A stretch of 64,000 bases of DNA from Xestospongia muta (taxonomy: Eukaryota > Porifera > Demospongiae > Haplosclerida > Petrosiidae), in the NCBI GenBank assembly GCA_963693285.1, contig OY848925.1, positions 6,674,932 to 6,738,931 on the forward strand, written 5' to 3'. The position numbers were made by a program, and so were the translations under genes. This document shows positions 352 through 50,808 of this stretch, piece after piece (within the stretch, counting starts at the first letter, position 1; every line of letters begins with the position of its first letter). The notes below the pieces were generated by a model. The model was not told the origin of the DNA and made no database searches. It saw nothing but the letters and a program-made list of their open reading frames with translations.

Positions 352-920
352 GAGACACTGGAAGTGTTGAGTGGTACAGTGATGGTGTTACACTTACTTC
401 ATCTACTGTGGCAGAATGTAAAGAAGTGATACGTCAATTAAAGAGAATACAACACACAACATGGAGTATTGAACTCTACTCATTATCTCCTCAAAGTTTA
501 CTTACAATATTAACTGATATTAATGGATGTCAAGTGAGGAGACTTGTTATAGAGAACACTCATTTTGATAGTAACTGTGTCAGTAAACTATCTCAAGTAC
601 TAACTTATAACCAAACAATGGAGTACCTAACTCTTTCCTCCTCACCTCTCGTACCAGATACTTACCACTTATTAACAACTGCTGTAGCTGATAATAAAAT
701 AATCAAGGAATTACACTTGTGGGATGACAGTAACATTACTGATAAAGACATACCACATCTATCTACTCTCATAACAAACACTAACACACTACAAGAACTA
801 TCTCTCTCTCACTGTCCTAATATTACTAAATTTGGTATACAACAATTACAAAATGTTGTTGTTAATAATAATAGTTTGAAGTTTTTGATTATTAATGATA
901 ATTTACTCCATTATTGTTAA
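352..920 (+). CDS. LRR terminal exon of receptor copy 0 (5' part outside window)
   Basis: This is the terminal exon of another array member: 569 nt, ending in TAA at 918-920, the same length as the terminal exon of copies 1-4. It encodes about six leucine-rich repeats of the ribonuclease-inhibitor/NLR kind (LxLxx strand followed by a helix). The exon enters at phase 1, with GDTGSVEWYSDG preceding the conserved VAECKEV. The scaffold residues match the other copies, while the strand-face residues differ (RRLVIEN where others have WGLNISH, RRLEIWN or RSLYIYN). A poly(A) signal AATAAA follows at 962-967. The likely role is ligand or self-recognition at the C-terminus of a death-fold protein; this is inferred from architecture only. 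Confidence 0.8.
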
Positions 921-1660
921 TTATTAGTTATTTTTGTACTATTGCTGTATTTTTTACTAAAAATAAATTATTTCAAATTCAAATAAGTCAATTATTAGTT
1001 AAATACTTTAGTTTCCAGTTCTTTGTCTTCTAACAAAGTTAACAATTTTTATAATTCACTTCTTCTCTAGAGAAACTATACTTCTCTACTTGACAATTGA
1101 CCACGCCTACATTATTCAATAATAAAAGCTTCAATATTGTTATTTCTAATATTTACAAATACAATTATAACAAAAAAACTAGACTAAATTGTATATTAAT
1201 AGGCCTCTAGTTAGTAGCTATATAAAATTAAATATTATCGCTACGTCTAATACCACTAATTACTACTGCTAATACAAAATCCATTAATTAAAGCCAATAA
1301 CCTAAAAACTTATTTCCTACACACACAGTTCACTTAACAAGTTATTATATTTAATAACACGTTCTATTTAATAATACACTCACTTTTAACAATTCCATGA
1401 AAGTACTGATCCATACAAGCAACATCAGAAGATTTCTTGATAACATTACAACTATTAACTTACTACTAAACAAACTTAGTTTCTATTAACAGTAGTAGAC
1501 TGTATCTAGTAGTTAGCAGTTTTGCTAGTTAGTTATCTTCTATCATTAGTAGTTTCTAGTAAAGAAGGCTTAAAGCAGTAAAGACTTAAGCAGTAAACTT
1601 TTTCTCACTGATAGCTACTGGTTTCTACAGCTGCTACTTTAATAGGTGTGGTCACTGTGG
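921..1660. other. Spacer 0-1, 3' flank of receptor copy 0
   Basis: AT-rich 3' flank shared with the spacers after copies 1-4 (for example 9609-10335 and 34518-35262). No open frame of note was seen. Around 1650 the homology stops at the point where the other spacers continue into the kinesin relic. Here the sequence jumps straight into the 28-bp minisatellite, so about 4 kb present in other spacers is missing. Confidence 0.6.
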
Positions 1661-2222
1661 TATGTAATATATACACGGTATACTACTGTATGTAATATAT
1701 ACACAGTGTACTACTGTATGTAAAATGTACACAGTGTACTACTGTATGTAATATATACACAGTGTACTACTGTATGTAATATATACACAGTGTACTACTG
1801 TATGTAAAATGTACACAGTGTACTACTGTATGTAATATATACACAGTGTACTACTGTATGTAATATATACACGGTATACTACTGTATGTAAAATGTACAC
1901 AGTGTACTACTGTATGTAATATATACACAGTGTACTACTGTATGTAAAATGTACACAGTGTACTACTGTATGTAATATATACACAGTGTACTACTGTATG
2001 TAAAATGTACACAGTGTACTACTGTATGTAATATATACACAGTGTACTACTGTATGTAATATATACACAGTGTACTACTGTATGTAATATATACACAGTG
2101 TACTACTGTATGTAAAATGTACACAGTGTACTACTGTATGTAATATATACACAGTGTACTACTGTATTTAATATATACACAGTGTACTACTGTATGTAAT
2201 ATGTACACAGTGTACTACTGTA
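1661..2222. repeat. 28-bp minisatellite, about 20 units
   Basis: Tandem array of a 28-bp unit containing TGTAATATATACACAGTGTA, with variants (TAAAATGT, TAATATGT). The same array occupies the PLEKHH intron upstream (+ strand) of the exon beginning CTTTGATCC at 14396-14562, 39331-40114 and 56046-56631, so this is a relic of that intron. The core TACACAGTGTA is self-complementary around a central base. Confidence 0.9.
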
Positions 2223-2223
2223 C

Positions 2224-2709: not shown

Positions 2710-5700
2710 ATGGCAAAGAAACAAGTTGATGCAAAGCTATTGATATCTTTTCTGAGTCAGGCTCAGCTAGGTAAGTAGATAGTTAATTGTCTTCTTTATT
2801 ATTAAGTATGAGTATTGACTGTCTGAGTCATCAATGAGTATTTTAACTTATTTCTCAGATATCTCTCACTTAAGTGCTGTGTTTGAAGCCTTGGAGAAAC
2901 ATATGTTTCCATGTCGAAGATGGTTTGAGTTAGGTCTATTGTTGGGTATACTACAACCTACACTAGCAAAAATTGAAAAGGATCATCGTGATGATGTAGT
3001 TCGATGTCTTCAGGAGTGTTTAACTTGCTGGCTGAGAAGAGTTGATCAAGTTGATGAGAATGGAAGACCGTCATGGGATGTACTAGTTAGTGCTTTGAAG
3101 AAGATGAAAGAAAATTATGTGGCTGAAAATATCACTCAAACAAGTATGATATGATTCTAAGATTATGATATTTATGATTTGTTTATTAGTGAAAGAACAA
3201 ATCCAGTCTGCTGGACAAGTTCTGATATACCCTGCACAAATGTCACAGCTGTTATATAGTGAGAGATGTATCAATGAAGTGATCCTTGATGAGGTGGAGA
3301 CACTACAGGGTGTGGTTGATAATAAGAGAACAACCCTCTTATCTGCTGTACGTGCTGCAGTGTCTTCTGATCACAAGAATATCAAAGTACTAGCTAAAGT
3401 GTTGTCTGAATTTGAAGAGACAAGAGAATTAGCCGATAAACTACTCAATGAATATAGTAAGTTCTCTGTTGTTAATTAAACATGACAATTTCTCTTGTTA
3501 ATTGTGTAGCTCAAAAGTTTCCAGAAGATAAGGACATTTCAATAATTCCTCAAAATACATGTAGTTATCAACAGTCTGCTAGTGATATTCTTCGTTGTCA
3601 CTATGCCACTTTGTCCAAGTCTCTACATGATCCTATTAGTATTGGATGGCTACTTTGTGAGCAAGACCCAACAATAATATCAGAAGAAACACTTACTAGT
3701 ACTGAGTTTATAAGGATATGTGAGTCAGAGAGAAGAGTAGTCTTGTTGAGAGCTGTACGTTGTGCTGTTCGTAGTAGCTCTAATAACTTGGAGGTATTTG
3801 TTAGTGCACTATTAAAGTTCTCTGAAAATGTGTCGTTAGCTAAAGCTATTTTGAATGACTACAGTTAGTAATTGAATTGTATTAATGAATATTTAAAATT
3901 ATGTCCATAGATAAAGAGCTTGAAAGAAAAAAGAAAGATGAAGAACCTTCAACAGATAACGGTATAGTCAATGTAATATAATAGTTATAATGGATATAGG
4001 AGGACTATAATATTTGACACTCACCTTTAAGATGAGGTGAATCAGTCCTCTTAGATCTGTTAGATGTGTTATGCCAGGAGCGCATGCGCTCCTGGTTATC
4101 CTGAGTGAGTAACATATAAAAACAATTGCATGTGAATGTTATTATAGTAAACAATATTCATAGTCCATCCACCCACTAAATAAAAATTTATAATTCAAGT
4201 ACATTATGTGTGAAATTTTGTACCAAATTTAGCTACAACAGAAGTATTGGTACCTTTGGATATGGCACCAACATTTACATCAATCAGAGGAGAATTTGCT
4301 AAAGCTGTTTTCAATATCCGTTGTTGTATTACTAAGAGCACAGCATCTGCAGAAGAAGTTAAAAGGTTACTTTATGGTTTCCCTGACCTGAAGCCAGAGT
4401 TATCTAATGCCAAAACAATGGATGATATACTGGATGTTGTACATGACAAATGTACACTGATTAATATCAATTATTTGGAAGTTGTTGTGGAGCAGTTTAA
4501 AGTTGAAGATGCTAAGGCATACATTGAAGCATACAAGGATATCATTGACAAGTTCTCTCAGAAAGTAACAATTAAATTATGTCTTGGTGAGCGCTTCCAG
4601 ATTACACAAAATCTCTCTCCTCTTAAATGTGAAACAGCCAAGTTTGTTCTCGACTGGAATCCTGACACCACCATGGCCACTTTGAATGATGTTAGAGATA
4701 TTTTAGCAGTATCATTTCAGAAATTGGAGAAGTCTGTTAAAATTGATGTCATCAAAAAAGACAACTCCATCACTGTGACCTGTACCTTTCCTCTCCATCT
4801 ACTTGTACGACTCATTGACATTGCTCAGGAGACTATTGAGCTTGTGAAGAAGAGAGGATTAATCCGACTTATAATTGGTCCTTGTATTATTTGGGATATC
4901 AGCAGTAGAGATCAGGTATATATAAAGTTACACTATAATAGTATCCATGTATTTATGATATAGGAGATGAAATCTTTGGCAATGGAGATAAAAGAGAAGC
5001 AGACACATTTTGAGAAGCAGTTGGAGACACAGTATGCAATTAGCAGGAGGAAGACTCTGGAAATTGAAGATTTGAGGGCTAAACTCAAACAGTTGGAAGG
5101 TAACAGGACTATAATTGTAAAAATCATCATTTAAAGATGGCATAGTAAGACATTGATTGACTTTGAAAAGTTTGCATAAGATATCCAGAGGCTAGCAGTA
5201 GAGAAGCAAGCTAGCTAGTTAGTACTCTAATAAGTCACACGACCTGTAATACTTGTATGCAGTAGAGGAGCTTAATCATTGAGTGTACATCTGTTGTTTG
5301 AGTACATGTAGTTAAATGTTATTAGTTTGTTGTTTTAAATTGTTATGTGCAACAATACAAGCTGGTTGTATACAAATGTATAATTACTGCATAGCTATAA
5401 ATACTGTAGGATTGTTTACATGCCAGGCAGTAAAGGTATTAATGCTTCACTATTTCTGTATATTATACTGTATTTGTTACATTATTATGTATTGTAATAT
5501 TAGTTGATAAAGTGGAATTGAAGTCAGAGGCACAAATTTCAGAATTAAAGGAGAAAGATGAGGAGATTGATACATTAAAATTAGCCCTTAAAGAAAAAGA
5601 AAGTAAGGAAACATTAAATGTCACAATATAACATGTAATATTACATAGTGGATCATTTAGACTATGCAGGATTAAATAGCAGTAGTTTTACAAATTAATT

Positions 5701-8700: not shown

Positions 8701-9608
8701 CTCGTGAGTCATTTTGGCTAGTGACAACTGAAGTCATCTTTATTGATGGCTATCTGACAGCTCAGTACCTTGTGTGCCTATCTCAGTAGTAGATATTGAC
8801 GTTCCTCATCTTAGCTCACATCATCTAATATAGTAAATTATTAGTATAACACTCAGTAAATTTAAGACCGTTTTGTAGAATCCGTTCATCTCCGTACATC
8901 ATTGCTATAGTAACCTAACATCAGTAATGGCGTCGTCTTCTTCGTTAGGCCTTGACAATCGTAGTTGAGCATGTTAGAGTGTGTGTATAGCTATTGTTGT
9001 GTGTGTAAAATATTATATAGTAACTATGTTTTATTATAGGAGACACTGGAAGTGGTGAGTGGGAGAGTGATAGAGTTACACTTACTTCATCTACTGTGGC
9101 AGAATGTAAAGAAGTGATACGTCAATTAAAGAGACGACAACACACAACATGGAGGATTACACTCAACAGATTATCTCCTCAAAGTTTACTTACAATATTA
9201 ACTGATATTAATGGATGTCAAGTGTGGGGACTTAATATATCTCACACTCATTTTGATAGTAACTGTGTCAGTAAACTATCTCAAGTACTAACTTATAACC
9301 AAACAATGGAGTACCTACGTCTTACCTCCTCACCTCTCGTACCAGATACTTACCACTTATTAACAACTGCTGTAGTTGGTAATAAAATAATCAAGAGTTT
9401 AGTGTTGTGGTATGACGATAATATTACTGATAAAGACATACCACATCTATCTACTCTAATTACAAACACTAACACACTACAACATCTATATCTCTATGAC
9501 TGTCCTAATATTACTAAATTTGGTATACAACAATTACAAAATGTTGTTGTTAATAATAGTAGTTTGAATTATTTGTTTGTTAATGGTAATGTACTCCTTA
9601 GTCGTTAA
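2710..9608 (+). CDS. Receptor copy 1: death domain, CARD-like x2, coiled coil, LRR protein
   Basis: Sixteen exons read by GT-AG sites and frame: 2710-2770, 2859-3143, 3190-3456, 3510-3863, 3911-3961, 4233-4915, 4964-5099, 5504-5602, 5909-6046, 6094-6177, 6303-6440, 6487-6594, 6647-6745, 6973-7089, 7302-7382, 9040-9608. The sum is 3270 nt, or 1089 aa. The domains in order are as follows. Exon 2 is a death domain (RRWFELGLLLGIL, CLTCWLRRVDQ, PSWDVLVSALKKM). Exons 3 and 4 are two related CARD/DED-like helical modules (LLSAVRAAV and LLRAVRCAV). Exon 6 is an unnamed alpha/beta module of about 227 aa. Exons 7-11 are coiled coil, exons 12-15 an acidic linker, and exon 16 the LRRs. There is no signal peptide, membrane segment or NTPase in the main frame, so it is probably a cytosolic sensor or adaptor. 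The exon 4 donor is GTTAGT, where other copies have GTAAGT. Confidence 0.75.
4074..4095. repeat. 22-bp perfect palindrome in intron 5 of copy 1
   Basis: CCAGGAGCGCA followed by its exact reverse complement, bordered by TTA on both sides (4069-4071 and 4096-4098 by eye). Copies 3 and 4 have the uninterrupted sequence at this point. Copy 2 carries a Harbinger-like insertion at the same TTA. The core GCGCATGCGC also matches the NRF-1 site consensus. It could be an insertion or excision footprint. Confidence 0.85.
7383..9039 (+). other. Long last intron of receptor copy 1
   Basis: A 1657-nt intron between the acidic-linker exon 15 and the LRR exon. It begins with an in-frame read-through stretch rich in hydrophobic residues (7383-7624; see findings) and contains a LINE tail at 8262-8640. 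The rest is AT-rich without coding features. Equivalent introns are 23674-25014, 32292-33948 and 48604-50239. Confidence 0.7.
8262..8640 (-). mobile_element. Non-LTR retrotransposon (LINE) 3' tail
   Basis: Read on the minus strand, 8571-8470 encodes FVPSVLSLWNSLP followed by SSSLISFKSKVNIFLY and a stop. The xLWNSLP ... L.SFK pattern is typical of the C-terminal end of CR1/L2/Jockey-type reverse transcriptase ORFs. A terminal A/T-rich tail lies at the left end (TTTTTTATTTTTATT on +), as expected for a minus-strand 3' end. The same relic sits at 33173-33535 and 49471-49830, so it entered before the array amplified. Confidence 0.6.
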
Positions 9609-18419: not shown

Positions 18420-21400
18420 ATGGCAAAGAAACAAGTTGATGCAAAGTTATTGATATCTTTTCTGAGTCAGGCTCAGCTAGGTAAGTAGATAGTTAATTGT
18501 CTTCTTTATTATTAAGTATGAGTATTGACTGTCTGAGTCATCAATGAGTATTTTAACTTATTTCTCAGATATCACTCACTTAAGTGCAGTGTTTGAAGCC
18601 TTGGAGAAACATATGTTTCCATGTCGAAGATGGTTTGAGTTAGGACTATTGTTGGGTATACTACAACCTACACTAGCGAAAATTGAAAAGGATCATCGTG
18701 ATGATGTAGTTCGATGTCTTCAGGAGTGTTTAACTTGCTGGCTGAGAAGAGTCGATCAAGTTGATGAGAATGGAAGACCGTCATGGGATGTACTAGTTAG
18801 TGCTTTGAAGAAGATGAAAGAAAATTATGTGGCTGAAAATATCACTCAAACAGGTATGATATGATTCTAACATTATGATAGTTATGATTTATTTATTAGT
18901 GAAAGAACAAATCCAGTCTGCTGGACAAGTTCTGATATACCCTGCACAAATGTCACAGCTGTTATATAGTGAGAGATGTATCAATGAAGTGATCCTTGAT
19001 GAGGTGGAGACACTACAGGGTGTGGTTGATAATAAGAGAACAACCCTCTTATCTGCTGTACGTGCTGCAGTGTCTTCTGATCACAAGAATATCAAAGTAC
19101 TAGCTAAAGTGTTGTCTGAATTTGAAGAGACGAGAGAATTAGCTGATAAACTACTCAATGAATATAGTAAGTTCTCTGTTGTTAATTAAACATGACAATT
19201 TCTCTTGTTAATTGTGTAGCTCAAAAGTTTCCAGAAGATGAGGACATTTCAATAATTCCTCAAAGTACATGTAGTTATCAACAGTCTGCTAGTGATATTC
19301 TTCGCTGTCACTATGCCACTTTGTCCAAGTCTTTACATGATCCTATTAGTATTGGATGGCTACTTTGTGAGCAAGACCCAACAATAATATCAGAAGAAAC
19401 ACTTACTAGTACCGAGTCTATAAGGAAATGTGAGTCAGAGAGAAGGGTAGTCTTGTTGAGAGCTGTACGTTGTGCTGTTCGTAGTAGCTCTAATAACTTG
19501 GAAGTGTTTGTTAGTGTGTTATTAAAGTTCTCTGAAAATGTGTCGTTAGCTAAAGCTATTTTGAATGACTACAGTAAGTAATTGAATTGTATTAATGAAT
19601 ATTTAAAATTATGTCCATAGATAAAGAGCTTGAAAGAAAAAAGAAAGATGAAGAACCTTCAACAGATAATGGTATAGTCAATGTAATATAATAGTTATGA
19701 TGGATATAGGAGGACTATATTATTTGACACTCACCTCTAAGATGAGGTGAATCAGTCCTCTTAGATCTGTTATCATGTGTTAAGGTGGGTTCACAAAACT
19801 ACGTTTGTATATGCGTCACGTCGGATTCTTGGCATCGCGTTACGTAGTGCAGCATCGATGCTGTTCATATAAATAAGAGGATACACGTAAATTAAACTCC
19901 ACCCTCATCATGGAGACTGAAGTGTTGCTGATTGCTTTGCTTTACAGACAACAAAGAAGGCGACAGAAACAAAGAAAAATGTGGGTGCATCCTATATTTA
20001 CTTAACGGCACCAACAAGTCTTGATAATACAATTCAAAATACCATGACAAAAGTATATTGTTTCTGTTTGCTGTTTGTTCAGTTACCTGGCTAGCCACTT
20101 CCTTCCATGCTTTTTCTTTTGCTTTTGTATCCTTGTAGCTTTGTTTGAGACTTGCCACAAGTAAGGGAAACAACAAATAAGTTATGCCTCAATAAGTTTC
20201 TCGTCTGCCATAAAACACATAGTTATTGAAATTTGATTGGCTTCACACATTGCTTGGAACATCAAGATAGAAATCAATTCTATCCTTGCATCGCGACATG
20301 TCACGTTGGTGTGTCGTGCACGCACTGTGTTAATAAATTGATGCACGTACTCAACATGATGTGACGCAAGGCTTCGCGTCATTATGTGAACCAGCCTTCA
20401 TGCTGAGTGAGTAACATATGAAAGCAATTGCATGTGAATGTTATTATAGTAAACAATATTCATAGTCCATCCACCCACTCAATAAAATTTATAATTCAAT
20501 TTGTACCAAATTTAGCTACAACAGAAGTATTAGTACCTTTGGATATGGCACCAACATTTACATCAATGAGAGGAGAATTTGCTAAAGCTGTTTTCAATAT
20601 CCGTTGTTGTATTACTAAGAGCACAGCATCTACAGAAGAAGTTAAAAGGTTACTTTATGGTTTCCCTGACCTGAAGCCAGAGTTATTTAATGCAAAAACA
20701 ATGGATGATATACTGGATGTTGTACATGACAAATGTACACTGATTAATATCAATTATTTGGAAGTTGTTGTGGAGCAGTTTAACATTGAAGATGCTAAAC
20801 CACACATCAAAAGTTACAAGAATGTTGTCGAAAAATTTTCTGATGGAGTAGCAGTTGAATTGTGTCTTGGTAAGCATTTCCACATGGCACAAATACCCTC
20901 TTGTCTGAAATCTGAGACAGCTAAATTTGTTCTCGACTGGAACCCAGACAACACCACTTTGAATGATATTCGTGATATTCTGGCAGTCTCATTAAAGAAA
21001 TTAGCCAAATCTGTTAAAATAGATGTCATCAAAAGAAGCAACTCCATCACTGTGATATGCATCTTTCCTCTCCATTTACTTGGACGACTCATTGCCATTG
21101 CTCAAGAGACTATTGAGCTTGTAAAGAAGAGAGGATTAATTCAACTCTCTATTGGTCCATGTATTATTTGGGATATCAACAGTAGAGATCAGGTATATAT
21201 AAAGTTACACTACAACAGTATCCATGTGTTGTTGATATAGGAGATAAAATCTTTGGCGATGGAGATAAAAGAGAAGCAAACACATTTTGAGAAGCAGTTG
21301 GAGACACAGTATGCAATTAGCAGGAGGAAGACTCTAGAAATTCAAGATTTAAGAGCTAAACTCAAACAGCTGGAAGGTAATAGGACTATAATTGTAAAAA

Positions 21401-24400: not shown

Positions 24401-25583
24401 ACTTACTATGTCAGTTTTGCAATCATGTGTATCAAACGTGGATTGTCTTAGCTTCTTAAAGGAAAAGTTACAACAAATCTATAGATTATTAAGTAGCTCC
24501 ACCCACTTCATCTGCAGTGATAATTATTTTGATTATCATATAACAGCACTACATTTAATATTTTATTACATCATGGTATTTGTATAGTAAAAGAGAAATG
24601 TAAACACACAAAAGACAAACCATAAATAAAAACTCCATTATCAGACATCATAATGATTCATGTTTGAGAGTTGGTGCTTATTTGTGAGTCATTTTGGCTA
24701 GTGACAACTCAGTCATCTTCACTGATGGCTATCTGACAGCTCAGTACCTTGTGTGCCCATCTCAGTAGTAGATATTGACATCCCCATCTTAGCTCACATC
24801 ATCTAATACAGTAAATTATTAATATAACTCAGTAAATTTAAGTCCATTTGTAGAATCCATTCATCTCCATACATTGTTGCTATAGAAACCTAACACTAGT
24901 AATGGCGTCGTCTTCTTTGTTAGGCCTTGACAATCATAGTTGAGCATGTTAGAGTGTGTGTATAGCTATTGTTGTGTGTGTAAAATATTATATAGTAACT
25001 ATGTTTTACTATAGGAGATACTGAAAGTGTTAAGTGGGAGAATAATAGAGTTACACTTACTTCATCTACTGTGGCAGAATGTAAAGAAGTGATACGTCAA
25101 TTAAAGATACTACAACACACGACATGGAGGATTACACTCATCTCATTATCTCCTCAAAGTTTACTAACAGTATTAACTGAAATTAATGAATGTCAAGTGT
25201 GGAGACTTGAGATATGTTACACTCATTTTGATAGTAACTGCGTCAGTCAACTATCACGAGTACTAACTTATAACCAAACAATGGAGGAACTATCTCTTTA
25301 CTCCTCACCTCTCGTACCAGATAATTACCACTTATTAACAACTGCTGTAGTTGGTAATAAAATAATCAAGAGATTAGAGTTGTGGGATGACAATAATATT
25401 ACTGATAAAGATATACCTCATCTCTCTAATCTCATTACAAACACTAACACATTACAATATCTATATCTCTACTGTCCTAAAATTACTAAATTTGGTAAAC
25501 AACAATTACAAAATGTGTGCATTAATAATAATAGTTTGAAGAGTTTGTATGTTAATGATAATATGGTCCTTAATCGTTATTAG
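18420..25583 (+). CDS. Receptor copy 2: death domain, CARD-like x2, coiled coil, LRR protein
   Basis: Exons: 18420-18480, 18569-18853, 18900-19166, 19220-19573, 19621-19671, 20516-21192, 21241-21376, 21786-21884, 22193-22330, 22378-22461, 22589-22726, 22773-22880, 22936-23034, 23263-23379, 23593-23673, 25015-25583. The sum is 3264 nt, or 1087 aa. The architecture is as in copy 1 and no stop or frameshift was seen. This is the most divergent copy. The second half of exon 6 (from about 20780) differs at many residues, for example NIEDAKPHIKSYKNVV where the others read KVEDAKAYIEAYKDII, although the first half is nearly identical. The LRR exon also differs in scaffold positions and lacks one residue in the fifth repeat. 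Intron 5 carries a Harbinger-like insertion at 19783-20397. The last intron lacks about 310 bp of the LINE relic. Confidence 0.75.
19783..20397. mobile_element. PIF/Harbinger-like non-autonomous element with MADF relic
   Basis: A 615-bp insertion in intron 5 of receptor copy 2, absent from copies 3 and 4. The ends are inverted repeats: AGGTGGGTTCACA at the left and TGTGAACCAGCCT at the right. The flanks are TTA (19780-19782) and TCA (20398-20400), where the empty site has a single TTA. A 3-bp TTA duplication is usual for PIF/Harbinger. On the minus strand, 20217 to about 20090 reads MADEKLIEA, then, after a frame change, SYKDTKAKEKAWKEVASQ. This resembles a MADF/Myb-like domain, the accessory ORF of Harbinger elements. 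No DDE transposase is present. Confidence 0.75.
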
Positions 25584-27648: not shown

Positions 27649-30600
27649 ATGGCAAAGAAACAAGTTGATGCAAAGCTATTGATATCTTTTCTGAGTCAGG
27701 ATCAGCTAGGTAAGTAGATAGTTAATTGTCTTCTTTATTATTAAGTATGAATATTGACTGTCTGAGTTATCAATGAGTATTTTAACTTATTTCTCAGATA
27801 TCACTCACTTAAGTGCAGTGTTTGAAGCCTTGGAGAAACATATGTTTTCATATCGAAGATGGTTTAAATTAGGTCTATTGTTGGGTATACTACAACCTAC
27901 ACTAGCAAAGATTGAAAAGGATCATCGTGATGATGTAGTTCGATGTCTTCAGGAGTGTTTAACTTGCTGGCTGAGAAGAGTCGATCAAGTTGATGAGAAT
28001 GGAAGACCGTCATGGGATGTACTAGTTAGTGCTTTGAAGAAGATGAAAGAAAATTATGTGGCTGAAAATATCACTCAAACAAGTATAATATGATTCTAAC
28101 ATTATGATAGTTATGATTTATTTATTAGTGAAAGAACAAATCCAGTCTGCTGGTCAAGTTCTGATATACCCTGCACAAATGTCACAGCTGTTATATAGTG
28201 AGAGATGTATCAATGAAGTGACCCTTGATGAGGTGGAGACACTACAGGGTGTGGTTGATAATAAGAGAACAACCCTCTTATCTGCTGTACGTGCTGCAGT
28301 GTCTTCTGATCACAAGAATATCAAAGTGTTAGCTAAAGTGTTGTCTGAATTTGAAGAGACGAGAGAATTAGCTGATAAACTACTCAATGAATATAGTAAG
28401 TTCTCTGTTGTTAATTAAACATAACAATTTCTCTTGTTAATTGTGTAGCTCAAAAGTTTCCAGAAGATGAGGACATTTCAACAATTCCTCAAAATACATA
28501 TAGTTATCAACAGTCTGCTAGTGATATTCTTCGTTGTCACTATGCCACTTTGTCCAAGTCTCTACATGATCCTATTAGTGTTGGATGGCTACTTTGTGAG
28601 CAAGACCCAACAATAATATCAGAAGAAACACTTACTAGTACTGAGTCTATAAGGAAATGTGAGTCAGAGAGAAGGGTAGTCTTGTTGAGAGCTGTACGTT
28701 GTGCTGTTCATAGTAGCTCTAATAACTTGGAGGTATTTGTTAGTGCACTATTAAAGTTCTCTGAAAATGTGTCGTTAGCTAAAGCTATTTTGAATGACTA
28801 CAGTAAGTAATTGAATTGTATTAATGAATATTTAAAATTATGTCCATAGATAAAGAGCTTGAAAGAAAAAAGAAAGATGAAGAACCTTCAACAGATAATG
28901 GTATAGTCAATGTAATATAATAGTTATAACGAATATAGGAGGACGATATTATTTGACACTCACTATTAAGATGAGGTGAATCAGTCCTCTTAGATCTGTT
29001 ATCATGTGTTATGCTGAGTGAGTAACATATGAAAACAATGGCATGTGAGAGTTATTATAGTAAACAATATTCATAGTCCATCCACCCACTAAATAAAAAT
29101 TTATAATTCAAGTACATAATGTGTGAAATTTTGTACCAAATTTAGCTACAACCGAAGTATTGGTACCTTTGGATATGGCACCAACATTTACATCAATCAG
29201 AGGAGAATTTGCAAAAGCTGTTTTCAATATCCGTTGTTGTATTACTAAGAGCACAACATCTGCAGAAGAAGTTAAAAGGTTACTTTATGGTTTCCCTGAC
29301 CTGAAGCCAGAGTTATCTAATGCAAAAACAATGGATGATATACTGGATGTTGTACATGACAAATGTACACTGATTAATATCAATTATTTGGAAGTTGTTG
29401 TGGAGCAGTTTAAAGTTGAAGATGCTAAGGCATACATTGAAGCATACAAGGATATCATTGACAAGTTCTCTCAGAAAGTAACAATTAAATTATGTCTTGG
29501 TGAGCGCTTCCAGATTACACAAAATCTCTCTCCTCTTAAATGTGAAACAGCCAAGTTTGTTCTCGACTGGAATCCTGACACCACCATGGCCACTTTGAAT
29601 GATGTTAGAGATATTTTAGCAGTATCATTTCAGAAATTGGAGAAGTCTGTTAAAATTGATGTCATCAAAAAAGACAACTCCATCACTGTGACTTGTATCT
29701 TTCCTCTCCATCTACTTGTACGACTCATTGGCATTGCTCAGGAGACTATTGAGCTTGTGAAGAAGAGAGGATTAATCCGACTTATAATTGGTCCTTGTAT
29801 TATTTGGGATATCAACAGTAGAGATCAGGTATATATAAAGTTACACTACAACAGTATCCATGCATGTATTTATGATATAGGAGATGAAATCTTTGGCAAT
29901 GGAGATAAAAGAGAAGCAGACACATTTTGAGAAGCAGTTGGAGACACAGTATGCAATTAGCAGGAGGAAGACTCTGGAAATTGAAGATTTGAGGGCTAAA
30001 CTCAAACAGCAGGAAGGTAACAGGACTATAATTATAAAAACCATCATTTAAAGATGGCATAGTAAGACATTAATTGACTCTGAAAAGTTTGCATAAGATA
30101 TCCAGAGGCTAGCAGTAGAGAAGCAAGCTAGCTAGTTAGTACTCTAATAAGTCACATGACCTGTAATACTTGTATGCAGTAGAGGAGCTTAATCATTGAG
30201 TGTACATCTGTTGTTTGAGTACATGTAGTTAAATGTTATTAGTTTGTTGTTTTAAATTGTCACATACAACAATACAAGCTGGTTGTATACAAATATATAT
30301 ATTACTACATAGCAATAAATAACTGTAGGACTGTTTGCATGCCAGGTAGTAAAGATATTAATGCTAGACTATTTCTGTATATATGTTACATTATTATGTA
30401 TTGTAATATTAGCTGATAAAGTGGAGTTGAAGTCAGAGGCACAAATTTCAGAATTGAAGGAGAAAGATGAGGAGATTGATGCATTAAAATTAGCCCTTAA
30501 AGAAAAAGAAAGTAAAGAAATATTAATTTGTCACGATGGAATATTACATAGTGGATCATTTAGACTATGCAGGATTAAATAGCAATAGTTTTACAAATTA

Positions 30601-33600: not shown

Positions 33601-34517
33601 AGAGTTGGTGCTTATTTGTGAGTCATTTTGGCTAGTGACAACTGAGTCATCTTTATTGATGGCTTTCTGACAACTCAATACCTTGTGTGCCTATCTCAGT
33701 AGATATTGACGTCCCCATCTTAGCTCACATCATCTAATACAGTAAATTATTAGTATAACACTCGGTAAATTTAAGACCGTTTTGTAGAATCCGTTCATCT
33801 CCGTACATCATTGCTATAGTAACCTAACATCAGTAATGGCGTCGTCTTCTTCGTTAGTCCTTGACAATCGTAGTAAAGCATGTTAAAGTGTGTGTATAGC
33901 TATTGTTGTGTGTGTAAAATATTATATAGTAACTATATTTTATTATAGGAAACACTGGAAGTGTTGAGTGGACTAGTTATAGAGTTACACTTACTTCATC
34001 TACTGTGGCAGAATGTAAAGAAGTGATACGTCAATTAAAGAGACGACAACACACAACATGGAGGATTAGACTCAAGTCATTATCTCCTCAAAGTTTACTT
34101 ACAATATTAACTGATATTAATGGATGTCAAGTGAGGAGACTAGAGATATGGAACAATCATTTTGATAGTAACTGTGTCAGTAAACTATCTCAAGTACTAC
34201 CTTATAACCAAACAATGGAGGAACTATATCTTATCTTCTCACCTCTCGTACCAGATACTTACCACTTATTAACAACTGCTGTAGTTGGTAATAAAATAAT
34301 CAAGGAATTATGGTTGTGGGATGACAATAACATTACTGATAAAGACATACCACATCTATCTACTCTAATTACAAACACTAACACACTACAAGTACTATCT
34401 CTCAATGGCTGTCCTAATATTACTAAATTTGGTATACAACAATTACAAAATGTTGTTGTTAATAATAATAGTTTGAAGTATTTGAGTGTTAATAATAATG
34501 TACTCCTTAATCGTTAA
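27649..34517 (+). CDS. Receptor copy 3: death domain, CARD-like x2, coiled coil, LRR protein
   Basis: Exons: 27649-27709, 27798-28082, 28129-28395, 28449-28802, 28850-28900, 29146-29828, 29881-30016, 30413-30511, 30814-30951, 30999-31082, 31202-31339, 31386-31493, 31549-31647, 31881-31997, 32211-32291, 33949-34517. The sum is 3270 nt, or 1089 aa. It matches copy 1 almost base for base outside the LRR codons and small intron indels. Small differences in the death domain include FSYRRWFKLG for FPCRRWFELG, and exon 1 has SQDQL for SQAQL. LRR strand faces are RRLEIWNNHF, EELYLIFS, KELWLWDDNN, QVLSLNGC and KYLSVNNN. No disabling change was seen. Confidence 0.75.
33173..33535 (-). mobile_element. 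LINE 3' tail (copy 3 last intron)
   Basis: Same relic as 8262-8640, with the same orientation and the WNSLP segment; orthologous by position in the last receptor intron. Confidence 0.55.
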
Positions 34518-38750: not shown

Positions 38751-38817
<67 letters not shown>

Positions 38818-40114: not shown

Positions 40115-40952
40115 ACCTTTGATCCATTCTTCGCAGTCAGCATTACTATCAGCAACAAAATGATAGGTTCTGGTGGGTGTGGCCAGCTAACAAGGGAGGG
40201 TATGGTATAGGAATGGTAATATTGGATTGAGTCTTACTTGAAAGGAACTTGTCATTTCATGTCGAGTTATTTTACACCAAGCAGCGAGATTGATCACACC
40301 CTTAGCTCTGCAGTTAGGGGTTTTCTACATTAGATATAAGCAAATCAGATGTCAAACTGAATTGGTCTTTTCTGATGTACTTTTGAAAAATATTTCAACT
40401 CCTTTCCTTTGAGGACAAACCAGCGTCTTGTCCAATGTTTCAAACGAGGGTCCAACTTATGCAAGTAACCTTGTTTCTCACATAGAATCTGATGTAGGAA
40501 AGTCATCCAATTATTAATTGTAATGTGATGTAAAATGATGTAATATATTGTGTATAAACATATATGATGTAATGTGATGTAATATGTTGTAATGTTAATA
40601 TAGCATAATGTGGTGTAATATCACATAATACATGTAATATCATGTAATATTATGTAATATTATGTAATGTAATCATACACTGTTTCCTGATGCACCAGGT
40701 AAAGTAGTTGTGTATTTACGATCACGAGTAGAATCTGGAGGTACAGATGGATCATGTTACACAGGTTCAACATAACCAAATGAAGCATCTGGTGGTATTA
40801 CATAATCATCGCTATCAGAATCTGAACTAACACTAGAATCTAGATGAATGGATGAATGAATGAATGGATACTTCAAACCTGTTTTCTGCTGTTGTGATGG
40901 AATAGGAGACATAACAGAAGATGACACTAATGTTTTAGTATGATATAAATCA

Positions 40953-43981: not shown

Positions 43982-46900
43982 ATGGCAAAGAAACAAGTTG
44001 ATGCAAAGCTATTGATATCTTTTCTGAGTCAGGCTCAACTAGGTAAGTAACAATTGTCTTCTTTATTATTAAGTATGAATATTGTCTATCTGAGTTATCA
44101 CTGAGTATTTTAACTTATTTCTCAGATATCACTCACTTAAGTGCAGTGTTTGAAGCCTTGAAGAAATACATGTTTCCATGTCGAAGATGGTTTGAGTTAG
44201 GACTATTGTTGGGTATACTACAACCTACACTAGCGAAAATTGAAAAGGATCATCGTGATGATGTAGTTCGATGTCTTCAGGAGTGTTTAACTTGCTGGCT
44301 GAGAAGAGTCAATCAAGTTGATGAGAATGGAAGACCGTCATGGGATGTACTAGTTAGTGCTTTAAAGAAGATGGAAGAAAATTATGTGGCTGAAAATATC
44401 ACTCAAACAGGTATGATATGATTCTAACATTATGATATTTATGATTTATTTATTAGTGAAAGAACAAATCCAGTCTGCTGGACAAGTTCTGATATACCCT
44501 GCACAAATGTCACAGCTGTTATATAGTGAGAGATGTATCAATGAAGTGACCCTTGATGAGGTGGAGACACTACAGGGCGTGGTTGATAATAAGAGAACAA
44601 CCCTCTTGTCTGCTGTACGTGCTGCAGTGTCTTCAGATCACAAGAATATCAAAGTACTAGCTAAAGTGTTGTCTGAATTTAAAGAGACAAAAGAATTAGC
44701 TGATAAACTACTCAATGAATATAGTAAGTTCTCTGTTGTTAATTAAACATAACAATTTCTCTTGTTAATTGTGTAGCTCAAAAGTTTCCAGAAGATGAGG
44801 ACATTTCAATAATTCCTCAAAGAAGATGTAGTTATCAACAGTCTGCTAGTGATATTCTTCGTTGTCACTATGCCACTTTGTCCAAGTCTCTACATGATCC
44901 TATTAGTGTTGGATGGCTACTTTGTGAGCAAGACCCAACAATAATATCAGAAGAAACACTTACTAGTACCGAGTCTATAAGGATATGTGAGTCAGAGAAA
45001 AGGGTAGTCTTGTTGAGAGCTGTACGTTGTGCTGTTCGTAATAACTCCAATAACTTGGAGGTATTTGTTAGTGTGTTATTAAAATTCTCTGAAAATGTGT
45101 CGTTAGCTAAAGCTATTTTGAATGACTACAGTAAGTAATTGAATTGTATTAATGAATATTTAAAATTATGTCCATAGATAAAGAGCTTGAAACAAAGAAG
45201 AAAGATGAAGAACCTTCAACAGATAACGGTATAGTCAATGTAATATAATAGTTATAACGAATATAGGAGGACTATATTATTTGACACTCACCTCTAAGAT
45301 GAGGTGAATCAGTCCTCTTAGATCTGTTAGATGTATTATGCTGAGTGAGTAACATATAAAAACAATTGCACGTGAATGTTATTATAGTAAACAAATTCAT
45401 AGTCCATCGACCCACTTACTAAAAATTTATAATTCAAGTATATTATGTGTGAAATTTTGTACCAAATTTAGCTACAACAGAAGTATTGGTACCTTTGGAT
45501 ATGGCACCAACATTTACATCAATCAGAGGAGAATTTGCTAAAGCTGTTTTCAATATCCGTTGTTGTATTACTAAGAGCACAGCATCTGCAGAAGAAGTTA
45601 AAAGGTTACTTTATGGTTTCCCTGACCTGAAACCAGAGTTATCTAATGCAAAAACAATGGATGATATACTGGATGTTGTACATGACAAATGTACACTGAT
45701 TAATATCAATTATTTAGAAGTTGTTGTGGAGCAGTTTAAAGTTGAAGATGCTAAGGCATACATTGAAGCATACAAGGATATTGTTGACAAGTTCTCTCAG
45801 AAAGTAACAATTAAATTATGTCTTGGTGAGCGTTTCCAGATTACACAAAATCTCTCTCCTCTTAAATGTGAAACAGCCAAGTTTGTTCTCGACTGGAATC
45901 CTGATACCACCATGGCCACTTTGAATGATGTTAGAGATATTTTAGCAGTATCATTTCAGAAATTGGAGAAGTCTGTTAAAATTGATGTCATCAAAAAAGA
46001 CAACTCCATCACTGTGACCTGTACCTTTCCTCTCCATCTACTTGTACGACTCATTGGCATTGCTCAGGAGACTATTGAGCTTGTGAAGAAGAGAGGATTA
46101 ATCCGACTTATAATTGGTCCTTGTATTATTTGGGATATCAACAGTAGAGATCAGGTATATATAAAGTTACACTATAATAGTATCCATGTGTTGTTGATAT
46201 AGGAGATGAAATCTTTGGCAATGGAGATAAAAGAGAAGCAGACACATTTTGAGAAGCAGTTGGAGACACAGTATGCAATTAGCAGGAGGAAGACTCTGGA
46301 AATTGAAGATTTGAGGGCTAAACTCAAACAGCAGGAAGGTAACAAGACTATAATTGTAAAAACCATCATTTATAGATGGCATAGTAAGACATTAATTGAC
46401 TTTGAAAAGTTTGCATAAGATATCCAGAGGCTAGCAGTAGAGAAGCAAGCTAGCTAGTTAGTACTCTAATAAGTCACATGACCTGTAATACTTGTATGCA
46501 GTAGAGGAGCTTAATCATTGAGTGTACATCTGTTGTTTGAGTACATGTAGTTAAATGTTATTAGTTTGTTGTTTTAAATTGTCACATACAACAATACAAG
46601 CTGGTTGTATACAAATATATATATTACTACATAGCAATAAATAACTGTAGGACTGTTTGCATGCCAGGTAGTAAAGATATTAATGCTAGACTATTTCTGT
46701 ATATATGTTACATTATTATGTATTGTAATATTAGCTGATAAAGTGGAGTTGAAGTCAGAGGCACAAATTTCAGAATTGAAGGAGAAAGATGAGGAGATTG
46801 ATGCATTAAAATTAGCCCTTAAAGAAAAAGAAAGTAAAGAAATATTAATTTGTCACAATGGAATATTACATAGTGGATCATTTAGACTATGCAGGATTAA

Positions 46901-49900
46901 ATAGCAGTAGTTTTACAATTTAATTTAGCAAAGTCTTTACCATCACACCCACACATTATATTACATTCATTTCTCAACATGAAGTTCATAAATCATCATA
47001 ATTTTTCATTTCAAACACCAATTTACAAGTATTTCATTACTGAATTAGCCCAACATTGATATAAATTAGTGTCTATTAAAAATATTTTATTTATATAGTG
47101 TATTGGGTAATATATAAGTACAATATATTTTATAGAAACTGTTCAAGAAATATTAGAAGACAAACAAAAAGATGATGTTAAGTTGAGAACTAAACTTGAA
47201 GTACAAGAGATAACAATTAATGAGAAGACAATGGAGATAGATGATTTAAAATCTATCCTTGAAGACAAAGAAAGTATATAACATTACAAGTAGTATATCA
47301 TAAACTATACTCTATTTTAGTTGAGTTACAATTATTGAAGAAGACATCAGAACAGCAACAAGTAGAGATCAAAGAGTTAAAATCTATTCTTCAAGAAAAG
47401 GAAGGTATGTAATAATAATCCCTCATACTAGCTCTTATGTCACTATGTATAAACATATTATAGTATATAGTACATGCTGTATTACTATATGATAGATTTA
47501 TATATTGAATATCACTCTCGTAGCTTCAGAGAAGACATTAAGGTCAAATGTAATAGAGAGAGAAGAAGTAAAGTCATTACAGGAAACGATTGCATCACTT
47601 ACCTCAAAATTAAAAGAGAGGCAAAAAGATACAAGTGTTCTAGAGAAGACCACAAAAAGTACCTGATATATTGATGTGATTATGTAACTACTTACTTTAT
47701 TTAGGTAAAGCTTTTTTGACATCTGATACTGATGATGATACTCTCCTACCAGCTGAACCACTTCATGTATCTTCTAAAACAAAAAATACACAACGAGAGT
47801 CCATTACTACAAGTAAATACACTACATATAATATGATGATATTTTACACTATATATACTTTGTAGTGTCAAAGATCAATGTTACTGATGATGATGTAATA
47901 ACAGAACTAGATGTTAAAGAGAAGTTTCCACGACATGTACAGCCAGTACCTTCTATTAGTGAAGGTAAATTTAATATAAATATAGCTGTACTATATTTTA
48001 AACCTCTTAATGAAATTTTTGGGAAAATAATTTTATAAATAATGCAATCAACTCTTTCGATGATGTTTATATTAAGTAGTTAGTATACCTTTGTTGTCAC
48101 ACCTATTTAATACAAATTTGACATATTTCATTTCATATTATCACTAGATCTAAAGTAATGATATCATAGTAACATTTAATGTTTTATTTAGTAGAGTCAG
48201 AGATGAAAGTGTTGTCAAAAGTAACAAAAGATGACATACCAATAGAACCAGAACCAGAGGTAAAAGAGAAGCCATTAGGTTTTCTACAGTCTCTATTTAC
48301 AAGAAAAAGTAAGTATATGTTATTGTTTTAACTGATATATTTAGTTTTACTGTACTCTGCATCAAAAGACCTATAGCCACAAAACACAACACTCTATTTA
48401 TAGAGACATAATCATTAAAAAAAATTAAAATGAAACATAAAGATAAGAATGCTATATATATTATAGTCAGTATATAGAGTAGTAGTGAGATCTATTCTGA
48501 GGAGACCATCTTTATTTTTTAGAGTCACAGCCAATGAAAGATGACATTCCAATAGAACAAGAGGATAAAGAGACGTCATCTGATCTTCTACAACTTCCAA
48601 AAGGTAGCATACATGTTATTATTTTAGTTAACTTCATTATTGTGTTCACTATTAAAATATTCAGCATTAAAAAGCTCACAGCCATTCTCAGCCTAACATG
48701 CCCCATTGTAAGTAGTCTGGTATATTTGCTTCCTTTTCTTGGGATAAGAAATGATATACACACTGGTATTGTTGTGTCCAATGAAATTGCTGTTCAAATC
48801 TTGGGAAATGAATATTGTTATATTATCACACGGCATCTAAAAGTAGAGTTACTATTTTAGAGGAACAGGACATGGGATGATAAACAATATAATTGTAACA
48901 TTTAAGACTTCTTGTCCCAAGAAAATCAACTCAAAACACTTGTGTTATGGAGTGTGATAGTTAGTTCATGTGTTTAGTTACTTAGTTACCTAATGAGTAA
49001 GTTCTGTCTTCATATGTGGCTGAGGTACTAACAGATTATTGTCAGCTTTAATCAAATGAACCATTCATGGTATTGTGTCAACATATATCATAAAATATGT
49101 ACAGTAGGAATAGCTATGAATGACCAAATCTTCACTATCTACTGTTATATACAGTGTCTGCATTACATCAAACATGACTAAACTCATATAATTTGTACTA
49201 CACAAAATAGTCAGATCAGTAGCTATATATAGTACACTAATGATAGTAAGACCATAATATTAATAATTAGTAATAATTTAGACTAATTCCTAAACTCTTC
49301 AATTGTGGACACTGTTTACTTACTATGTCAGTTTTGCTATCATGTGTATCAAACATGGATTGTCTTAGCTTCTTAAAAAAAAGATGGCAACAAATCTAGA
49401 GATTATTAAGTAGCTCCACCCACTTCATCTGCAGTGATATTTTGATTATCACATCACAACACTACATTTAATGGTTTTTTTATTTTTTTTATTGACAAAA
49501 ATGAATGCCCAATAGCCACTGCTATTTTGAAGGGCACAAACAGAATAGAACAATAATAAATAAAACAGAATTAAAGTATTAAAGTACAGGATATAGTATC
49601 ATTAATAACACAGAGATAAAGTAAGTGACTGATATAATAGGTTTAGTGTGATAAGTGATGGTTAGTAAAGAAATATATTTACTTTAGATTTAAAAGTGAT
49701 TAGAGATGAGCTAGATTTTACACAAGGAAGTGAATTCCACAAAGAGAGAACAGAAGGGGCAAATGAGTTTTTATTACATCATGATATTTGTATAGTAAAA
49801 GAGAAATGTCAACTAGGTTGATATAAACACACAAAAGACAAACCGTAAACAAAAACTTTGTTATCAGACATCATAATGATTCATGTTTGAGAGTTGGTGC

Positions 49901-50808
49901 TTACTCGTGAGTCATTTTGGCTAGTGACAACTGAAGTCATCTTTACTGATGGCTATCTGACAGCTCAGTACCTTGTATGCCTATCTCAGTAGATATTGAC
50001 GTCCCTCATCTTAGCTCACATCATCTAATACAGTAAACTATTAGTATAACACTCAGTAAATTTAAGACTGTTTTGTAGAATCCGTTCATCTCCGTACATC
50101 ATTGCTATAGTAACCTAACATCAGTAATGGCGTCGTCTTCTTCGTTAGGCCTTGACAATCGTAGTTGAGCATGTTAGAGTGTGTGTATAGCTATTGTTGT
50201 GTGTGTAAAATATTATATAGTAACTATGTTTTATTATAGGAGACACTGGAAGTGTTCAGTGGTACAGTGATAGTGTTATACTTACTTCATCTACTGTGGC
50301 AGAATGTAAAGAAGTGATACGTCAATTAAAGAGACAACAACACACAACATGGTGGATTACACTCAACTCATTATCTCCTCAAAGTTTACTTACAATATTA
50401 ACTGATATTAATGGATGTCAAGTGAGGAGTCTTTATATATATAACACTCCTTTTGATAGTAACTGTGTCAGTAAACTATCTCAAGTACTAACTTATAACC
50501 AAACAATAGAGGACCTACGTCTTAACTCCTCACCTCTCGTACCAGATACTTACCACTTATTAACAACTGCTGTAGTTGGTAATAAAATAATCAAGGGATT
50601 AGTGTTGTGGTATGACAGTAACATTACTGATAAAGACATACCACATCTATCTACTCTAATTACAAACACTAACACACTACAAGTACTATCTCTCTATCAC
50701 TGTCCTAATATTACTAAATTTGGTATACAACAATTACAAAATGTTGTTGTTAATAATAATAGTTTGAAGTATTTGTATGTTAATGATAATTGGCTCCTTA
50801 GACGTTAA
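43982..50808 (+). CDS. Receptor copy 4: death domain, CARD-like x2, coiled coil, LRR protein
   Basis: Exons: 43982-44042, 44126-44410, 44457-44723, 44777-45130, 45178-45228, 45472-46154, 46203-46338, 46735-46833, 47136-47273, 47321-47404, 47524-47658, 47705-47812, 47866-47964, 48192-48308, 48523-48603, 50240-50808. The sum is 3267 nt, or 1088 aa. It matches copy 3 most closely in exons 6-13. One codon of a GAA/GAG run in coiled-coil exon 11 is deleted. The death domain has ALKKYMF for ALEKHMF. LRR strand faces are RSLYIYNTPF, EDLRLNSS, KGLVLWYDSN, QVLSLYHC and KYLYVNDN. No disabling change was seen. AATAAA follows the stop. Confidence 0.75.
49471..49830 (-). mobile_element. LINE 3' tail (copy 4 last intron)
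   Basis: Same relic as 8262-8640 and 33173-33535, with the conserved LWNSLP coding segment in antisense. Confidence 0.55.

What the first reader, a model, noticed from the sequence alone, without database searches (positions are those of the whole stretch)
352..50808. LRR strand-face codons hypervariable among otherwise near-identical tandem receptors
Seen: comparing the five LRR exons (352-920, 9040-9608, 25015-25583, 33949-34517, 50240-50808), differences cluster in six short patches at the xLxLxx strands. Numbered from the conserved VAECKEV, these are about residues 20-25, 44-50, 73-78, 101-107, 130-135 and 159-169. Patch 2 reads RRLVIEN / WGLNISH / WRLEICY / RRLEIWN / RSLYIYN, often with two or three base changes per codon. 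The helices and loops between patches, most of the introns and exons 1-15 are almost unchanged (copy 2 excepted). Known: these positions line the concave ligand face of LRR proteins and are the diversified positions in VLRs and plant and animal LRR receptors. Inference: strong diversifying selection, or a mechanism that swaps short strand cassettes, acts on a recognition surface.
Basis: partly seen in the sequence, partly recalled or inferred. Interest (0 to 1): 0.88.

Follow-up and report, generated by a model that had tools for sequence, protein, structure and literature searches.

The report
Hypervariable face on shared LRR exon
An animal-like genome carries many near-identical copies of one small protein module in which mainly the residues of its presumed binding face differ, and those differences look shuffled codon by codon between genes, as in a combinatorial library of recognition surfaces.

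Summary
The five intact exons differ most at alternate codons of six parallel strands of an RI/NLR-type LRR domain (AlphaFold2 pLDDT 93.8). The genome has at least 151 related places; I compared the best 71. Joint omega is about 16 at 26 hypervariable codons and 0.3 elsewhere; silent differences between same-residue codons are not raised. Eight exons of a second, about 42% identical family vary at the same columns.

New points: the exon with its flanks is a nearly homogenised module on at least three Death-domain architectures; strands are not inherited as cassettes; a residue at a site almost always uses one codon, which substitution-only simulations cannot match together with the observed diversity and lack of linkage.

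Best reading: a large receptor-like family with a homogenised scaffold, strong diversifying selection on the binding face, and fine-scale reshuffling of shared codon variants, probably by ectopic gene conversion. It works like Podospora NWD and zebrafish NLR-B30.2 genes. Ligand, function, and germline or somatic timing are untested.

The parts
352..920 (+). terminal LRR exon, copy 1 (its upstream gene lies outside the window)
   Evidence: open to stop, AG acceptor; no Death domain upstream in the window
9040..9608 (+). terminal LRR exon, copy 2
25015..25583 (+). terminal LRR exon, copy 3 (divergent)
33949..34517 (+). terminal LRR exon, copy 4
50240..50808 (+). terminal LRR exon, copy 5 (reference; codon c starts at 50242+3(c-1))
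50263..50280 (+). variable N-terminal hairpin, codons 8-13 of copy 5 (hypervariable 8, 11)
   Evidence: strands 5-7 and 11-15 in the model
50350..50367 (+). strand 1, codons 37-42; hypervariable 38, 40, 42
50422..50442 (+). strand 2, codons 61-67; hypervariable 62, 63, 65, 67
50512..50526 (+). strand 3, codons 91-95; hypervariable 91, 93, 95
50596..50613 (+). strand 4 and next codon, codons 119-124; hypervariable 119, 121, 123, 124
50683..50700 (+). strand 5 and next codon, codons 148-153; hypervariable 148, 150, 152, 153
50767..50793 (+). strand 6 and C-terminal hairpin, codons 176-184; hypervariable 176-179, 182, 184 (176 does not reach LR 10.8)
49769..51598 (+). homogenised module (intron flank + LRR exon + 3' flank), 89-96% DNA identity in the long loci that share it; edges differ between copies (often 49769 or 49960 on the left, 51598 on the right)
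44110..44400 (+). Death domain of the gene that ends in copy 5
   Evidence: Pfam PF00531 22.8 bits, cut-off 22.6; tblastn
45468..46139 (+). middle domain of unknown fold (224 aa)
   Evidence: conserved across copies; model pLDDT 74.6, no PDB match at E<=0.001
2843..3133 (+). Death domain, gene ending in copy 2
   Evidence: tblastn 95%
18553..18843 (+). Death domain, gene ending in copy 3
   Evidence: tblastn 96%
27782..28072 (+). Death domain, gene ending in copy 4
   Evidence: tblastn 93%

Best explanation
The five exons belong to a genome-wide family of terminal exons that each encode a complete small RI/NLR-type LRR domain. The strand-face codons (alternate codons of six strands plus an N-terminal hairpin) are under strong diversifying selection. 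The rest of the exon and its intron flanks are kept nearly identical by exchange between copies. Variant codons look shared by descent between copies and chromosomes and are reassorted between copies down to a few bases, most likely by frequent ectopic gene conversion and recombination, so each gene carries its own combination. The exon is also exchanged as a unit between genes with different N-terminal Death-domain architectures, so a recognition surface can be joined to different signalling parts. Shown here: family size (lower bound), variable sites, dN/dS, near linkage equilibrium, codon sharing, module on several architectures. Inferred: that the face binds ligands, that the proteins are intracellular immune or allorecognition receptors, and that gene conversion is the exchange mechanism.
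For: 151 related places in the genome (482 candidates, 150 scored); an exon 36-mer is found 77 times with up to 3 mismatches, reversed control 0. In 71 exons pN is 0.49 at the first 20 hypervariable codons and 0.055 at background codons. Joint omega 16 at 26 hypervariable codons, 0.3 at 158 others; 31 sites with omega>1 at LR>10.8 (49 copies). Silent differences among same-residue pairs 2.6% at hypervariable, 4.2% at background codons. Two copies with 6 of 736 flank differences differ at 14 of 20 hypervariable codons. Normalised excess information within strands 2.8%. Codons per residue 1.05 observed against 1.18-1.81 in substitution-only simulations; none of the five omegas and two tree scales tried fits diversity, codon economy and linkage together (similar with 49 copies). 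C9 and C3 clusters share 78 of 84 and 75 of 86 common codon variants; 100 of 104 C9 codons whose residue also occurs in C3 occur there as the same codon. Mosaic pair L016/L024, codons 73-156, Bonferroni p 4e-7. Module on different architectures with left ends of homology from -103 to -3392. Second family: 3.52 against 1.30 residues per column, p 1e-14. Fold and profile matches to NLRP3, NLRP1, NOD2 and ribonuclease-inhibitor LRRs.
Against: Only 1 of 2485 pairs shows a Bonferroni-significant shared tract, and near-equilibrium between codons six bases apart demands very fine exchange, which gene conversion does not obviously give. Counted by pathways, pS is higher at hypervariable codons (0.10-0.13) than in the background (0.069); I ascribe that to multi-step codon changes. 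Two recent duplicate pairs (L002/L004, L035/L040) show no hypervariable change. The N-terminal and C-terminal variable blocks do keep some linkage (41 combinations against 45.7 expected, 61 against 68.4), and C9 strands keep 6.2%. Decay of linkage with distance is weak (Spearman -0.10, p 0.18 in all copies; -0.14, p 0.05 in C9). Omega rests on a tree that exchange violates: upstream-flank columns on the downstream-flank tree fit best at rate 1.5 while downstream columns on their own tree fit at 0.5, so tree error may inflate rates two- to three-fold. No expression, population or ligand data.
Confidence: 0.69

Rival explanations
1. Diversifying selection alone: recurrent point substitutions at exposed codons in ordinarily duplicating genes, with no important exchange between copies.
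For: High omega, low same-residue silent change, codon sets at 18 of 26 hypervariable sites fully connected by single-base steps (one search lists the 8 that are not).
Against: Simulated on the backbone tree, omega 64 gives the diversity but 1.33-1.39 codons per residue and 10.6-14.9% silent difference, against 1.05 and 1.7% observed. The same module sits behind different upstream genes.
Confidence: 0.12
2. Strand cassettes: short blocks (one strand each) are swapped between copies as units.
For: Mosaic pairs; normalised linkage within strands is 6.2% in C9 against 1.0% between strands, p 0.004; some linkage in the N- and C-terminal blocks.
Against: Distinct strand combinations are close to the number expected for independent codons in strands 1-5 (for example 54 observed, 54.6 expected in strand 1); within-strand linkage is only 0.7-6% of the maximum.
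Confidence: 0.06
3. The exon module is, or was, carried by a mobile element that inserts it behind different genes.
For: Shared edges near 49769 and 51598 in many copies; downstream flanks beyond the module fall into 11 groups among 30 copies (15, 5, 2 and eight single).
Against: Upstream flanks fall into two main groups (38 and 10 of 50, two single); left ends of homology vary from pair to pair. Terminal repeats and target-site duplications were not searched for.
Confidence: 0.04
4. A dedicated targeted diversification machinery (deaminase-initiated or reverse-transcription-templated) acts on these exons.
For: Near-independent codons; a tandem cluster of 8-10 AID/APOBEC-like deaminase matches on C13.
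Against: Same-residue silent change is not raised; variable codons of the form NNA keep their A, unlike adenine-directed mutagenesis; WRC hotspots are rarer near hypervariable codons, 0.235 against 0.394 of G/C bases.
Confidence: 0.07
5. Assembly or copy-collapse artefact.
For: Near-identical tandem copies are hard to assemble.
Against: Each of the 70 loci fetched for this family holds an open exon and none was dropped; 47 of 120 database proteins match one of my 71 exons at 99-100% (the one mismatch was the start Met in the two 99% pairs read), though that set may come from the same individual; changes keep frame and strand geometry.
Confidence: 0.02

Closest known systems
Podospora anserina NWD (het-d/het-e) WD-repeat genes (PMC1805685, passages read)
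   Same: Repeats homogenised within and between ten genes (concerted evolution); a few exposed codons flanking conserved ones under positive selection; many standing combinations (55 in 69 repeats).
   Different: WD40 propeller repeats in fungal NACHT genes; here a six-strand LRR exon in an animal-like genome, no NACHT found with it. I saw no codon-linkage analysis in the passages read.
Zebrafish NLR-B30.2 family (PMC4852459, passages read)
   Same: Animal family of nearly 400; the C-terminal recognition exon is converted across groups whose NACHT domains have diverged; positive selection in that exon; the authors propose spreading of recognition modules.
   Different: Recognition module is B30.2, not LRR; proteins have NACHT.
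Plant highly variable NLRs (PMC8226289, abstract and outline seen)
   Different: Variation was measured between alleles in populations; NB-LRR proteins of plants.
Lamprey variable lymphocyte receptors (recalled; start of an abstract, PMC3900441, seen in the listing)
   Same: Variable residues on concave LRR strands of a conserved scaffold (recalled).
   Different: Assembled by a gene-conversion-like process mediated by cytosine deaminases (listing), in lymphocytes (recalled); here complete exons lie in the assembly.

Membership tests
RI/NLR-type LRR domain | alternating strand-helix repeats with the RI-like fold | tested here: met
   pLDDT 93.8, strands and helices alternate; Foldseek to NLRP3, NLRP1, NOD2, RI; profile hit to RI E 1e-14. 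Pfam LRR_1 alone did not reach its cut-off.
bona fide NLR (NACHT + LRR) | NACHT domain in the same gene | tested here: not met
   None of 98 NACHT matches in the genome lies on C9 (155 candidates, 102 scored); nine window ORFs scanned gave only Death, MyTH4 and PH over Pfam cut-offs. A very diverged NACHT would be missed.
variable lymphocyte receptor | somatic assembly from partial cassettes into an incomplete germline gene | tested here: inconclusive
   The assembly already holds complete open exons; separate germline and somatic DNA not available.
variable lymphocyte receptor | LRRNT/LRRCT caps and secretion or membrane anchor | tested here: inconclusive
   Pfam reports no cap model for the exon; signal peptides and anchors were not predicted.
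concertedly evolving, diversifying recognition family (NWD / NLR-B30.2 kind) | backbone homogenised across members with diverged partner domains | tested here: met
   Module 89-96% identical behind different Death-domain architectures.
concertedly evolving, diversifying recognition family (NWD / NLR-B30.2 kind) | dN/dS above 1 at exposed sites | tested here: met
   exposure inferred from the LRR fold, not measured on coordinates
concertedly evolving, diversifying recognition family (NWD / NLR-B30.2 kind) | shown role in self/non-self or pathogen recognition | not testable with these tools
   needs experiment
diversity-generating retroelement target | variation limited to template adenines (recalled) | tested here: not met
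   NNA-type variable codons keep the third A: 68 of 71 at codon 40, 69 of 71 at codon 119.
mobile element cargo | terminal repeats and target-site duplications | not tested
   only edges and flank groups were compared

The most novel reading that the evidence does not exclude
The exon family is a codon-resolution combinatorial library maintained by an active exchange system with very short tracts (perhaps deaminase-initiated templated repair) that reshuffles binding-face codons between well over a hundred LRR genes, in the germline or even in the soma: a VLR-like solution in an invertebrate, with exchangeable Death-domain signalling parts.
Probability: 0.12. Interest if true: 0.96.

Novelty: new variant of a known kind. 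Interest (0 to 1): 0.82.

Why it matters
It would show that an animal probably lacking antibodies keeps a very large, structurally focused recognition repertoire in plain LRR exons without NACHT, which NLR counts based on NACHT + LRR (the definition in the Dysidea survey PMC12909245, passages) would not include. Many near-identical copies in one genome give the statistical power to ask how binding-face diversity is made: by selection on mutations, by exchange, or by a dedicated process. The near-absence of linkage between codons six bases apart is an open, directly testable puzzle.

Tried and rejected
Local hypermutation: not supported, because same-residue silent change is not raised (2.6% against 4.2%) and conserved codons within two of a hypervariable one are no more silent-variable than far ones (pS 0.059 against 0.072); the pathway-counted pS at the hypervariable codons themselves is higher (0.10-0.13), which I ascribe to multi-step changes. 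Adenine-templated mutagenesis: rejected. AID hotspot footprint: absent. Strand cassettes: rejected as main unit. Mobile element: thought less likely, kept as a rival; upstream flanks form two main groups but downstream flanks form 11 among 30 copies. First simulation with all codons allowed was too permissive and was replaced by simulations limited to observed residues. Middle-domain fold: model of moderate confidence, no significant match. Viral contigs and phage records searched for the exon: no relative. Middle-domain figures of gene 2 are spoiled by an indel and not used. Allele-like database variants: three pairs with 4-6 differences (16 in all, 7 at hypervariable codons) and one pair with a single difference elsewhere; too few to use and possibly paralogues.

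Death, WW and APOBEC-like domains suggest an animal; a sponge is my guess from recalled gene content, not tested.
Full report
What is there. They are last exons of tandem genes with a Death domain, helical repeats, a middle domain of unknown fold and coiled-coil-like stretches (the last is my reading of the ORFs) upstream. Four complete genes of this layout lie in the window; the gene of exon 352-920 begins outside it. The units are tandem duplications with about 96% DNA identity over 9-12 kb, except the unit near 18.3-25.6 kb.

Family size. The window is part of an unnamed 158 Mb genome in 28 contigs. A protein search with the copy-5 exon finds 151 places at E<=1e-5, a lower bound because 150 of 482 candidates were scored. 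Most close ones lie on C9 (5.8-6.7 Mb) and C3 (0.3-2.1 Mb), some on C12, C14, C1 and C2; six of the roughly 150 listed rows on the way down to 40% identity have stops inside. An exon 36-mer occurs 77 times with up to three mismatches, reversed control 0. I hold 71 distinct complete exons, the 71 best rows: five from the window and 66 others (70 loci were fetched, four of which repeat window copies). More distant copies are therefore not represented.

Hypervariable codons. With amino-acid entropy of 1.7 bits or more, 26 codons stand out: 8, 11, 38, 40, 42, 62, 63, 65, 67, 91, 93, 95, 119, 121, 123, 124, 148, 150, 152, 153, 176-179, 182, 184. In the AlphaFold2 model (39 rows, pLDDT 93.8) the strands are 37-42, 61-67, 91-95, 119-123, 148-152 and 177-180, so in strands 1-5 variable codons alternate with conserved Leu/Ile codons. 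That they point to the concave face follows from the LRR fold; I did not measure exposure on coordinates. Foldseek's top match is NLRP3, with NLRP1, NOD2 and ribonuclease inhibitor among the 68 matches at E<=0.001 (50 rows shown); a profile search gives ribonuclease inhibitor at E 1e-14.

Selection. Mean pairwise pN and pS are 0.49 and 0.10 for the first 20 hypervariable codons (0.50 and 0.13 for all 26), 0.055 and 0.069 for the background. On a tree of 49 copies built from non-coding flanks, the joint ML omega on the grid tried is 16 for the 26 codons and 0.3 for 158 others; 31 sites have omega>1 at LR>10.8, 25 of them in the set. Exchange breaks tree methods, so I scored flank columns on each other's trees: upstream columns on the downstream tree fit best at rate 1.5, downstream columns at 0.5 on the upstream tree and at 0.5 on their own. 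Tree error may thus inflate rates two- to three-fold, not sixteen-fold. Silent differences between copies with the same residue are 2.6% at hypervariable and 4.2% at background codons (27 C9 copies: 1.3% and 2.3%). The pathway-counted pS is higher at hypervariable codons than in the background; I read that as a by-product of multi-step codon changes. Copies with nearly identical flanks differ as much as distant ones: six of 736 flank bases go with 14 of 20 hypervariable codons; Spearman between flank and hypervariable difference is 0.17, against 0.59 for background (51 copies, 1275 pairs). Two duplicate pairs with 0 and 2 flank differences show no hypervariable change.

An independent replicate. 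Eight exons of a second family on C4, about 42% identical to the window exon, are 79-89% identical to each other and vary at the same columns: 3.52 distinct residues per column at the 25 aligned hypervariable columns against 1.30 at 156 others, p 1e-14. A search with one of them gives 150 matches, with 150 of 559 candidates scored, and a 36-mer of that family occurs 101 times, control 0. Only eight copies were read.

Linkage. Information shared between hypervariable codons beyond chance is small: normalised 2.8% within strands and 1.2% beyond in 69 copies, 0.7% and 0.4% in 42 C3 copies, 6.2% and 1.0% in 25 C9 copies (the last difference p 0.004). Distinct combinations are close to independence in strands 1-5; the N-terminal block (41 against 45.7 expected) and the C-terminal block (61 against 68.4) keep some linkage. 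As a control, polymorphic background codons 1-2 apart are clearly linked in the 69 copies (mean z 8.5, against 1.2 for hypervariable codons), partly because C3 and C9 differ; in 27 C9-type copies background codons are not linked either. Strand cassettes as units are therefore excluded as the main process.

Codon economy. At most variable sites each residue has one codon, for example Arg only AGG (22) and Ser only AGT (28) at codon 38. I simulated codons on the backbone tree, allowing only observed residues. With 43 copies (two near-duplicates and six longer-branched rows dropped from 51), the data show diversity 0.738, 1.05 codons per residue, silent difference 1.7% and excess information 0.033. 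Omega 64 gives the diversity (0.74-0.77) but 1.33-1.39 codons per residue, 10.6-14.9% silent difference and 0.07-0.12 excess information; omega 128-256 approaches the lack of linkage (0.01-0.05) but with 1.5-1.8 codons per residue and 18-37% (five omegas, two tree scales; with 49 copies observed 1.07 against 1.36-1.81). So independent mutation in each lineage does not fit; codon variants look shared by descent and reassorted. In agreement, C9 and C3 copies (25 and 42; four others left out) share 78 of 84 and 75 of 86 common variants, and 100 of 104 C9 codons whose residue also occurs in C3 occur there as the same codon. One pair, L016/L024, is plainly mosaic (codons 73-156 identical, Bonferroni p 4e-7), but it is the only one of 2485 pairs that passes; the sum of longest identical runs exceeds all 200 shuffles (35572 against a mean of 29582), part of which reflects family structure.

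A shared module. In loci with long flanks, DNA identity of 89-96% extends from about 49769 or 49960 to about 51598 in copy 5 terms, in copies whose upstream DNA has no match, or only pieces at 65-73%, to the window gene. Of 20 loci with long upstream sequence (L031-L050), three have the window's Death type (L032 at 43%, L034, L037), ten have another Death type, five of these with a WW domain, five have a third N-terminus with its own Death domain (two of them, L035 and L040, near-duplicates), and two carry the third type's Death and middle domains without its N-terminus, one of them with the second Death type instead. Middle domains of the second type are 35-49% identical to the window's, while the LRR part is 81-85% identical in protein in all 20. 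Homology between architectures begins at several distances from the exon (about -103, -170, -280, -470, -580, -830, -1220, -3392; some may be indels), so exchange probably happened more than once. On a quick tree of the module the two upstream types need four changes, at least three forced by starred branches (49 labelled copies).

Mechanism. I take the family to be Death-domain LRR receptors whose binding-face codons are under strong diversifying selection, with exchange between copies both keeping the scaffold uniform and mixing variants. Ectopic gene conversion is the likeliest route, but near-equilibrium over six bases is more than I would expect from it, and this is the main unexplained point. 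The genome has a cluster of 8-10 AID/APOBEC-like matches on C13, an enzyme class that serves gene-conversion-like assembly in jawless vertebrates (abstract start in the listing); no hotspot footprint is seen, so this is only a lead.

Comparison. The nearest matches in kind are the Podospora NWD family (passages) and, in animals, zebrafish NLR-B30.2 (passages); plant hvNLRs share the variable LRR surface (abstract). The genes are not NLRs in the strict sense: none of 98 NACHT matches lies on C9. Eight literature searches in the open PMC library listed no paper whose title or shown abstract lines describe such a Death-LRR family; papers outside that library were not seen.

Noticed in passing
G000 C13:4423835-4440266: Tandem cluster of AID/APOBEC-like deaminase matches: 8 to PF08210 and 10 to PF18778, all over the Pfam cut-offs; none in the 14 control genomes.
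   Followed up: partly
G000 C4 (about 6.3-10.4 Mb, and 0.4-7.0 Mb): A second and, at about 63% identity to it, a third large LRR exon family; the second has the same hypervariable columns in eight copies read.
   Followed up: partly
window 37905-38513 and 40345-40620, - strand; similar DNA near 12-17 kb and 53-58 kb: MyTH4 and PH domain ORFs on the opposite strand in the spacer between receptor genes; the spacer DNA is duplicated with the units.
   Followed up: no
window 39331-40115, 1660-2222, 56046-56632: Tandem arrays with a 28-base period in the spacers of the gene units.
   Followed up: no
G000 C3:966963 and 970706 (L003, L022); C9:6486828 and 6489237 (L011, L035): LRR exons only 2.4-3.7 kb apart on the same strand, too close for a 7 kb gene between: alternative last exons or truncated genes.
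   Followed up: no
G000 C12 2.8-4.9 Mb, C2 12.3 Mb, C3 1.31-1.38 Mb and others: 98 NACHT matches, many in open frames over 1000 aa; the C3 group lies inside the C3 LRR exon cluster.
   Followed up: no
L036, L039, L043, L045, L050 upstream of the LRR exon: A WW domain between the Death-type N-terminus and the LRR exon, not found in the window genes with the same query.
   Followed up: partly
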